From NCBI GenBank assembly GCA_024642705.1, contig JAHEAQ010000009.1, forward strand, positions 18,325-82,324: a stretch of 64,000 nucleotides of DNA. Direction: 5' to 3'. The notes under the pieces are model-generated. The model was given only the letters and a program-made list of their open reading frames with translations, was not told where the DNA came from and ran no database searches. This document shows positions 60,652 to 61,695 of the stretch, one piece after another. This DNA is from Bacteroidota bacterium. GTDB lineage: Bacteria; Bacteroidota; Bacteroidia; Chitinophagales; Saprospiraceae. How positions within the stretch are numbered: position 1 is the first letter of the stretch; each line of letters starts with the position of its first letter. Both the position numbers and the translations under genes were made by a program.

Positions 60652-60838
60652 TATTTATTTTCTATTTCCTAATGTAATACAATCTTTATTCCACATTTTA
60701 ACATATGTCTAAAATATGTCATTTTATATGCCCAGCTAAAAAAAACGTCACTTAACATTTCCAGTATTACATTATAATGTGCCATGGCGACTTTTTCATG
60801 AACACATTTCAACAAGGGTGTAAAACAAATTGCGCAAA

Positions 60839-60989
60839 ATCTAATTTAGAGGCTATCAATATTTGGGATAAAAAGTATTGTACGCCATGACCCAAAAATA
60901 AAGCCACCCATTTACTCTGAAATATTAATACAATTTTTACTGCTGACATACAGGGTGCTGACATTCATCGTAAGGATCGTCATTACAAA
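60839..60989 (+). repeat. Direct repeat copy A (about 150 bp)
   Basis: Imperfect copy of 61451-61603. Shared core blocks include GCTATCAATATTT, CCATGACCCAAAAAT, CTGAAATATTAATACAATTT and GGATCGTCA. By eye about 80% of positions match. Confidence 0.8.
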
Positions 60990-61372
60990 TTGCTAAGTCA
61001 ACCTGAGTATTTAAAATTCTAGTTACTAAAAGAAATATCCATTTAGGATGCGTTTTTCAACAGCATAAGGAGTTAAAGTCGCAGAAAATCGGGAATCCTT
61101 GGACAGATTTTCCGATTTTAATTCCTGGTTTTCCTTGTGAAAGTATTTTAATAGGATTGAAAGGATTCATGCTCAAAAGAATAATTTCGATGCTGTAAAC
61201 AAGGAAAAATGCCTTTGAAAAACTGAGTTTTTTGTTTCGTTTTTTGCTCACTCAAAAAATGAAAACATTTAGTAACTACTAAGTTAGATGATTTATGGGT
61301 GTTTAATAAATAATTTTGTCATCATTTTTTGGTCAAAAATGCCTCCAAAATAAGATTCTTGAGTAATTCCTT

Positions 61373-61393
61373 GCCCTAGGTTGAACCTAGGGC
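61373..61393. repeat. REP-like palindrome
   Basis: GCCCTAGGTT-G-AACCTAGGGC is a 10-bp perfect inverted repeat around one base, followed closely by AGCCCTTT. It resembles the repetitive extragenic palindromes of many Bacteroidota. Confidence 0.6.
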
Positions 61394-61450
61394 TATAGCT
61401 ATTGCAGCCCTTTAAACTTATCTGCTCGCGTTTTACACATATTACACAAT

Positions 61451-61603
61451 ATCTAATTTAGATGCTATCAATATTTCGGATAAAAAGCCTCGCACACCAT
61501 GACCCAAAAATGAAGCCACCTATTTACCCTGAAATATTAATACAATTTTTAATACTGACTTTTTCATGGTCCTGACATTAATCGTCAGGATCGTCAATAC
61601 AAA
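61451..61603 (+). repeat. Direct repeat copy B (about 150 bp)
   Basis: Partner of 60839-60989, in the same orientation with 461 bases between the two copies. In this copy the end reads ATCGTCAGGATCGTCA, a 7-bp tandem pair. Confidence 0.8.
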
Positions 61604-61695
61604 AAGTGCAATTTGTTTTACACACATTTCCAAAAAATTGGATAGCAAATAAAATTATATAATATACTTTAGCATTTATATTCAAAATATTAAAC

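What the first reader, a model, noticed from the sequence alone, without database searches (positions are those of the whole stretch)
60818..61623. 806-bp noncoding segment bounded by perfect 16-bp terminal inverted repeats
GTGTAAAACAAATTGC and its exact reverse complement frame a segment without a convincing gene. This is the layout of a non-autonomous transposable element. A partial direct repeat ACACATTTC flanks the ends. It is the clearest structure that the ordinary genes do not explain.
Basis: partly seen in the sequence, partly recalled or inferred. Interest (0 to 1): 0.5.

Follow-up and report, generated by a model that had tools for sequence, protein, structure and literature searches.

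The report
Repeat tied to dead transposase genes
A stretch of DNA without genes turns out to be a mosaic of repeats whose two ends match those of small genome elements carrying a transposase-like gene that has lost its cutting residues and seems to be switched on together with the cell's DNA-uptake genes.

Summary
The 16-bp inverted ends are real but weak alone: 18 of 60 simulated windows hold such a pair. Recurrence makes them meaningful: 25 genomic matches against 4 reversed controls. Full length is single-copy; pieces recur at 62 places as a mosaic.

The same ends flank 1.2-1.3-kb elements (C42, C106, C9) encoding a relative of REP-associated Y1 transposases whose HUH and Tyr residues are lost in 23 of 23 copies, yet dN/dS is 0.09-0.27 (25 of 36 pairs). 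No abutting target duplication at 4 of 4 elements.

Two surprises. (1) Inside lies a ~215-nt three-way junction with tail hairpin; 34 of 57 pairs change on both sides; no Rfam match; found in 8 of 49 relatives. (2) All 20 sites GGTAACG-N15-ACACTAAT (≤1 mismatch) precede these degenerate genes (17, one inferred) or comM, radC, comEC (3); in same-genus G001, six of seven precede radC, comM, comEC, an ECF sigma gene and two HUH-bearing Y1 genes.

'MITE' is partly supported; mobilisation is unproven.

The parts
60818..61623 (.). 806-bp mosaic repeat segment bounded by the inverted ends
60818..60833 (+). left 16-bp inverted end; similarity to the left ends of gene-bearing elements extends to about 60875
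   Evidence: local alignment scores 40-51 against shuffle maxima of 27-30 for the C42, C106 and C178 left ends, not for C9 (24)
61608..61623 (-). right 16-bp inverted end; 61599-61623 is identical to the right end of the C9 element
   Evidence: 25 of 25 nt; score 50 for C9, 36 for C106; C42 only 29, equal to its shuffle maximum
60818..60989 (+). direct-repeat unit M1, copy A
   Evidence: D1, D3
61430..61603 (+). direct-repeat unit M1, copy B
   Evidence: D1, D3
60993..61055 (+). module between M1 copy A and the structured core, also next to the core at other loci
61051..61265 (+). structured module: predicted three-way junction (closing stem 61052-61060/61215-61223) plus tail hairpin; covariance model R1
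61235..61264 (+). tail hairpin TTTCGTTTTTTG-loop-CAAAAAATGAAA; the region around it has the most matches in the genome
   Evidence: (coverage up to 33)
61272..61421 (+). third repeated module (palindromic TTTTTGGTCAAAAATG inside)
60802..60810 (+). partial direct repeat ACACATTTC, left copy (right copy 61622-61630); not an abutting target duplication

Best explanation
The segment is an old, non-autonomous mosaic repeat. Its two ends are those of 1.2-1.3-kb elements that carry a gene derived from REP-associated Y1 transposases (RAYT/TnpA_REP). Shown by sequence: shared ends, mosaic copies, protein homology, loss of the HUH histidines and of the catalytic Tyr/Asn in all 23 long copies, constraint on the protein, and a covarying three-way-junction fold in the middle. 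Inferred: the ends and folds were once substrates of an active single-strand-DNA Y1 enzyme, as REPs are of TnpA_REP, and spread as non-autonomous passengers; the noncoding version arose from a gene-bearing element by loss of the gene and gain of other repeat modules. Also inferred: the degenerate proteins are transcribed from an ECF-sigma promoter shared with comM, radC and comEC, so they act, probably as hairpin-ssDNA binders, when the cell takes up single-stranded DNA. The 806-bp copy itself is probably immobile today (its internal repeats have diverged by 13-15%).
For: End 16-mer 25 against 4 control; inverted ends at both sides of C42:26091-27291, C106:3360-4566 and C9:41010-42335 (left end of C9 with 4 mismatches), each with the gene inside; end alignments above all 200 shuffles for 3 of 4 left and 2 of 3 right ends. 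Protein family: 38 protein matches in the genome, some of them pieces of one gene; profile against HUH-bearing relatives 99.5%, E 5e-23; HUH present in 25 of 27 relatives' loci read (the other two are G006; three of the 25 read by eye) and in 0 of 23 own copies; Tyr and Asn 16/16 in a set chosen for its HUH, 0/23 here; dN/dS 0.09-0.27 in 25 of 36 pairs, 11 not computable. Fold: single-sequence folds of copies from two other families, G-U 31 against 5 on the other strand. Promoter-like site: 20 hits against 3 reversed controls at ≤1 mismatch, all 20 in front of the family (17, one of them inferred at a contig end) or comM/radC/comEC (3).
Against: The only full-length copy is this one. The perfect pair of ends could be partly luck (18 of 60 simulations). 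The C42 right end and C9 left end do not align better than shuffles. No target duplication was seen, and no empty site was tested. The fold module lies within about 1.5 kb of only 2 of 23 gene copies and of 0 of 28 relatives' loci, so its link to the protein is weak. Relaxing the promoter-like site to 2 mismatches gives no excess (26 against 24 controls); 9 of 23 long genes keep ACACTAAT but have 3-5 mismatches. No Y1 gene was found in this genome by PF01797, though that model also misses an HUH-bearing relative (protein 3).
Confidence: 0.68

Rival explanations
1. A classical MITE of a DDE-transposase insertion sequence, cut and pasted at short target sites.
For: Perfect 16-bp inverted ends and no gene; ends recur in the genome; a 7-9-bp partial direct repeat nearby.
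Against: No abutting target duplication at 4 of 4 elements with paired ends; the elements that share the ends carry a Y1-derived gene; only one full-length copy. A DDE transposase with these ends was not searched for by family; 11 of the 25 end matches were not examined.
Confidence: 0.14
2. A BIME-like cluster: independent extragenic repeats (M1, the three-way junction, tail hairpin, third module) piled up side by side in an intergenic gap, with the perfect end pair a by-product of two M1 copies; the 806-bp unit never moved as one piece.
For: Modules occur in different subsets and orders at other loci; 0 of 16 structured copies overlap a neighbouring ORF of 90 aa or more; the two M1 copies are direct repeats.
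Against: The order core - third module - M1 is kept at C98, C105 and C118, and the left and right ends match left and right element ends respectively.
Confidence: 0.3
3. The functional part is a transcribed structured RNA (three-way junction with tail hairpin); the ends are irrelevant.
For: 34 of 57 pairs with changes on both sides and steep loss on sliding; G-U excess on one strand (31 against 5); copies at 61-104 bits in two other families and two other genera of the same family; no known Rfam family.
Against: Multi-copy and mosaic in this genome (32 matches), sparse elsewhere (8 of 49 relatives); no common neighbour gene was apparent in the four relatives' loci that I listed; a very similar fold is predicted for ssDNA, as expected for a REP-type substrate.
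Confidence: 0.25

Closest known systems
REP / REPIN / BIME repeats with RAYT (TnpA_REP) genes, in particular Bacteroidetes subclass 2.6 (RAYT group 5) of Quentin et al. 2018, PMC6006769
   Same: The protein family is homologous to such Y1 proteins; [quoted passage not shown] Assignment to subclass 2.6 itself was not tested.
   Different: HUH and Tyr/Asn residues absent in 23 of 23 copies; 23 long paralogues instead of a mean of 1.8 copies per genome listed for the subclass; paired 16-bp ends around three copies; a ~215-nt three-way junction instead of a hairpin of 20-40 bp (abstract of PMC3733652 as shown in the listing); the paper kept only proteins with HUH and Y motifs for its tree.
Miniature inverted-repeat transposable elements (MITEs)
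   Same: Short, noncoding, inverted ends shared with longer gene-bearing elements.
   Different: No target duplication seen, single full-length copy, partner gene catalytically degenerate and of the Y1 type.
Competence regulons (comM, radC, comEC; their membership in such regulons elsewhere is recalled)
   Same: The shared promoter-like site precedes comM/YifB, radC and comEC in this genome and in G001 (first 220 residues of each protein scanned; comEC there rests on its DUF4131 N-terminus), and an ECF sigma gene in G001 and a sigma-like gene below the cut-off in G002.
   Different: Y1-transposase-type genes sit behind the same site; I found no paper in the searched open-licence library that reports this.

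Membership tests
MITE | terminal inverted repeats | tested here: met
   perfect 16 bp, recurrent in genome
MITE | no coding capacity, short | tested here: met
   largest inner ORF 64 aa, 806 bp
MITE | several full-length copies with the same ends | tested here: not met
   one full-length copy; two large partial ones (C105, C118)
MITE | target-site duplication | tested here: not met
   0 of 4 elements with an abutting duplication
MITE | autonomous relative with the same ends and a functional transposase | tested here: inconclusive
   same ends around a Y1-derived gene, but its catalytic residues are lost
REP/RAYT system (REPtron) | Y1-transposase homologue in the genome | tested here: met
   profile-profile 99.5%; HMM hits to HUH-bearing relatives
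REP/RAYT system (REPtron) | HUH motif and catalytic Tyr | tested here: not met
   0 of 23 own copies; 25 of 27 relatives' loci have HUH
REP/RAYT system (REPtron) | hairpin repeats flanking the gene in inverted orientation and dispersed in the genome | tested here: inconclusive
   inverted ends fold as weak 18-nt hairpins at some ends only; structured module near 2 of 23 genes
REP/RAYT system (REPtron) | GT[AG]G-type guide next to the hairpin | not tested
   subclass 2.6 is reported to lack it
Known structured RNA family | match to an Rfam covariance model | tested here: not met
   no match up to E = 1 for the window segment or for three loci from other genomes
Competence regulon member (the gene family, not the 806-bp segment) | promoter-like site shared with competence genes | tested here: met
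   20 of 20 sites at ≤1 mismatch: 17 family (one inferred), 3 comM/radC/comEC
Competence regulon member (the gene family, not the 806-bp segment) | co-expression with competence genes | not testable with these tools
   no expression data

The most novel reading that the evidence does not exclude
Natural transformation in these bacteria is run by an autoregulated ECF sigma factor whose regulon contains Y1-transposase-type proteins. In G001 they still carry HUH; in this genome (and, in parallel, in G006 with a related-looking upstream box) they have multiplied into a family of catalytically dead hairpin-DNA binders that handle incoming single strands by recognising dispersed structured repeats, such as the three-way junction inside this segment: either to mark self DNA or to keep such repeats from transposing during uptake.
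Probability: 0.15. Interest if true: 0.88.

Novelty: new variant of a known kind. Interest (0 to 1): 0.6.

Why it matters
Y1 (HUH) transposases work on single-stranded DNA, and natural transformation brings single-stranded DNA into the cell. A shared promoter between transposase-type genes and comM/radC/comEC would tie the two processes together and could explain why RAYT genes are kept by their hosts, an open question. A family of 23 constrained proteins without the catalytic residues would be a clear case of transposase genes turned into something else. The three-way-junction repeat, present in several families of the order, is a structure not in Rfam. The 806-bp segment itself is mainly the thread that led to these.

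Tried and rejected
Reading as a classical MITE only: rejected as sufficient, no target duplication, Y1-type partner. Reading the ends as significant on their own: rejected, 18 of 60 simulated windows have such a pair. Known RNA family: none. Small ORFs inside the core (64-72 aa on the strand opposite to the fold in several copies): set aside because the alignment shows 1-2-nt indels between copies. Empty site by synteny: the flavin oxidase gene right of the segment was found in relatives at 53% or less, but I did not compare the intergenic regions. The 806 bp in phages and the protein in plasmids: no match. PADLOC: no match for 3 proteins. Pfam and PDB sequence searches gave nothing useful; NCBIfam matched 1 of 14 members weakly to REP_Tyr_transpos. 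Integron-type attC sites were considered by eye from memory and dropped without a test. Association of the fold module with the gene family: 2 of 23 (about 0.5 expected by my estimate), too weak to claim. dN/dS failed to compute for all 10 pairs of one subfamily and 1 pair of another. The scan of the named genome collection with the protein alignment returned only 7 distant HUH-type relatives (identified); its own genome may be left out there.

Library searches behind 'not found in print': (listings only). Papers: PMC6006769 passages; PMC8266576 abstract and outline; all others listing only.

Full report
Observation. The two 16-bp inverted ends at 60818-60833 and 61608-61623 are exact, and no ORF above 64 aa lies between them. 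In sequences simulated with the window's dinucleotide steps a perfect 16-bp inverted pair 100-2000 bp apart occurs on average 0.37 times and at least once in 18 of 60 runs, so the pair alone proves little. The genome settles it: the 16-mer with up to 2 mismatches is found 25 times against 4 for the reversed pattern.

What the segment is made of. BLAST of the 806 bp against its own 5.7-Mb, 194-contig assembly gives 62 matches (40 of 135 candidate places scored), one of them the segment itself and no other full length. The best others are C105 (query 225-805, 84%) and C118 (179-709, 77%). The matches show modules: a 172-bp direct repeat at both ends (M1), a flank module, a structured core with tail hairpin, and a third module. 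Their order is often but not always kept. Seven of the 17 best core copies lie within about 1.5 kb of a contig end (C105, C122, C78, C130, C97, C94, C1), so the assembly probably breaks at such repeats and the copy number may be a lower bound. In 39 relatives only 36-57-nt pieces match, in 3 genomes (at most 13 candidate places scored per genome).

Who shares the ends. I looked at the surroundings of 14 of the 25 end matches. Twelve belong to this segment (2), to its partial copies C105 and C118, or to elements that carry one gene or a piece or upstream region of it (C9, C42 twice, C106 twice, C74, C178, C30). C62 stops at a contig end 9 bp after the match and C98:84791 is a lone end. Eleven were not examined. 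Both ends are present around C42:26091-27291, C106:3360-4566 and C9:41010-42335 (left end of C9 with 4 mismatches). The left end of the segment aligns over about 56 nt with the left ends of C42, C106 and C178, and its right end over 23-25 nt with the right ends of C106 and C9, above all of 200 shuffles; the right end of C42 and left end of C9 do not. None of the four paired elements (the three and the segment) has an abutting target duplication.

The gene. The encoded protein (about 234 aa) has 38 matches in the genome, some of them pieces of one gene; 23 are long enough to compare throughout (one of these is cut by a contig end, two have an altered N-terminus). Pfam and NCBIfam give nothing reliable (1 of 14 members reaches REP_Tyr_transpos at 0.007). 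An HMM of 14 members finds relatives in 22 of 59 other genomes. Of 27 relatives' loci read, 25 have a HUH motif (three by eye where the script's pattern missed it) and the two without are from G006. Profile comparison with 16 HUH-bearing ones gives 99.5% and E = 5e-23 over 137 columns. At the catalytic Tyr and the Asn of YIHxN those 16, which I had chosen for their HUH, are all intact; at these and at the two HUH histidines all 23 own copies are changed (Q/E, Q/E/L, R/K/L, various). The roles of these positions follow PMC6006769. Yet dN/dS is 0.09-0.27 in the 25 of 36 within-subfamily pairs that could be computed. A second, separate set of degenerate copies exists in G006 (9 fetched, DGW[ALV]M in place of HUH). 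An unrooted tree places own and G006 copies as two groups next to each other, away from the HUH set, with a long-branch warning.

A promoter-like site shared with competence genes. Upstream of the family runs GGTAACG-N15-ACACTAAT. With at most one mismatch it occurs 20 times in this genome against 3 reversed controls. Fourteen sites precede long family genes, two precede truncated family genes at contig ends (C104, C157), one ends at a contig end but carries the family's upstream sequence (C47, inferred), and three precede comM/YifB (595 bits, above cut-off), radC (above cut-off) and comEC (Pfam Competence 170 bits above, TIGR00361 115 bits below cut-off). That YifB is ComM, and that these are competence genes in other bacteria, is recalled. 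With two mismatches there is no excess (26 against 24). Nine of the 23 long genes keep ACACTAAT but have 3-5 mismatches overall. In the same-genus genome G001 seven sites (control 1) precede radC, comM, comEC (DUF4131 N-terminus; first 220 residues scanned), an ECF sigma gene (TIGR02937, 55.7 bits, above its cut-off of 42.9), two HUH-bearing Y1 genes (one at Pfam Y1_Tnp 23.2 bits, cut-off 23; one at REP_Tyr_transpos 43 bits, below its cut-off of 80), and one apparent chance place. In G002 the two sites precede radC (named by eye) and a sigma-like gene (38.6 bits, below the cut-off), while its reversed controls also number two. Ten other relatives have one site each, no more than expected from the controls; I read five of these ten and saw no competence gene. 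That this is a promoter, and of ECF type, is inferred from its layout and from its place just in front of a sigma gene; no expression data exist here. In G006 the 9 degenerate copies and one HUH-bearing copy share, by eye, a different but similarly spaced box; competence genes there were not examined, nor was the sigma gene of this genome.

The structured core. Eleven copies give a three-way junction plus tail hairpin. A covariance model finds 32 matches in this genome and matches in 8 of 49 relatives (stricter filters, 47 candidates scored per genome), four of them at 61-104 bits: G052 and G028 from other families, G043 and G006 from other genera of the same family. In 23 aligned matches 93.6% of cells pair, 34 of 57 pairs have changes on both sides (14.0 in shuffles), and sliding by one column drops the covariation score from 0.233 to 0.093 or 0.064. 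Nineteen of these 23 rows are from this genome and the alignment is fitted to the model, so independent folds matter: copies from G052 and G028 fold on their own (z -2.8 and -4.5) into the same outer stem, two arms and tail hairpin (in G028 the inner part of the first arm differs), as does the window copy (z -5.6) as RNA or DNA. G-U pairs outnumber those expected from the opposite strand 31 to 5 in the 11-sequence alignment, so one strand is probably the folded one. Rfam has no match. None of 16 copies checked overlaps a neighbouring ORF of 90 aa or more.

Mechanism. Best supported: an old non-autonomous repeat that shares ends with elements of a Y1-derived gene family. TnpA_REP is reported to process single-stranded REPs in vitro (abstract of PMC8266576), and subclass 2.6 genes of Bacteroidetes are reported to be flanked by atypical structures with copies elsewhere; by analogy the ends and the core could be former substrates. 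The enzyme that moved them is not identified. PF01797 finds nothing in this genome. The degenerate proteins probably still bind folded single strands, and the shared upstream site suggests that they do so when DNA is taken up; both steps are inference.

Novelty and verdict. The segment is a new variant of REP/RAYT-like repeat biology rather than an ordinary MITE. The two wider observations, transposase-type genes behind a site shared with competence genes and a three-way-junction repeat found in several families of the order, were not found in the library searches listed, which cover open-licence papers only. Organism names are not known to me: the genomes bear handles only.

Noticed in passing
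G001:C33:545303 (L240), G001:C53:192338 (L242): Two HUH-bearing Y1 transposase-type genes of different kinds sit behind the same GGTAACG-N15-ACACTAAT site as radC and comM; L240's leader folds into a hairpin with a 15-bp stem.
   Followed up: partly
G001:C33:685304 (L245), G002:C22:544058 (L239): A sigma-type ORF starts 2 nt after the site, which suggests autoregulation.
   Followed up: partly
L104, L105, L106, L107, L121 upstream of the gene: The leader between the promoter-like site and the start codon forms a short hairpin (z about -5 against base shuffles) in five of 23 family members; others vary.
   Followed up: partly
G006 loci L246-L254: A separate set of nine degenerate Y1-like genes (DGW[ALV]M in place of HUH) with a common GGGTATA-like/ACACTTA-like upstream box, also before one HUH-bearing gene (L255).
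   Followed up: partly
G000:C74:469-676 and C157:73-455: The promoter region of the family gene is repeated, with a variant ACACTTAC copy about 180 and 350 bp upstream of the intact one.
   Followed up: no
G000:C9:41365-42018, C109:17128-17894 and C1:35550-36302: In two family genes the first 17-24 codons are not joined to the rest in the usual way; a third is broken in the middle.
   Followed up: no
L150 (G002) and L149 (G003): HUH-bearing Y1 genes in relatives are flanked by repeats of their own that look unrelated to these (by eye), as expected for RAYT genes.
   Followed up: no
L011 (C90) 1411-1465: A 17-bp tandem repeat ATGTCAGTACCTTGTAA next to the structured core.
   Followed up: no
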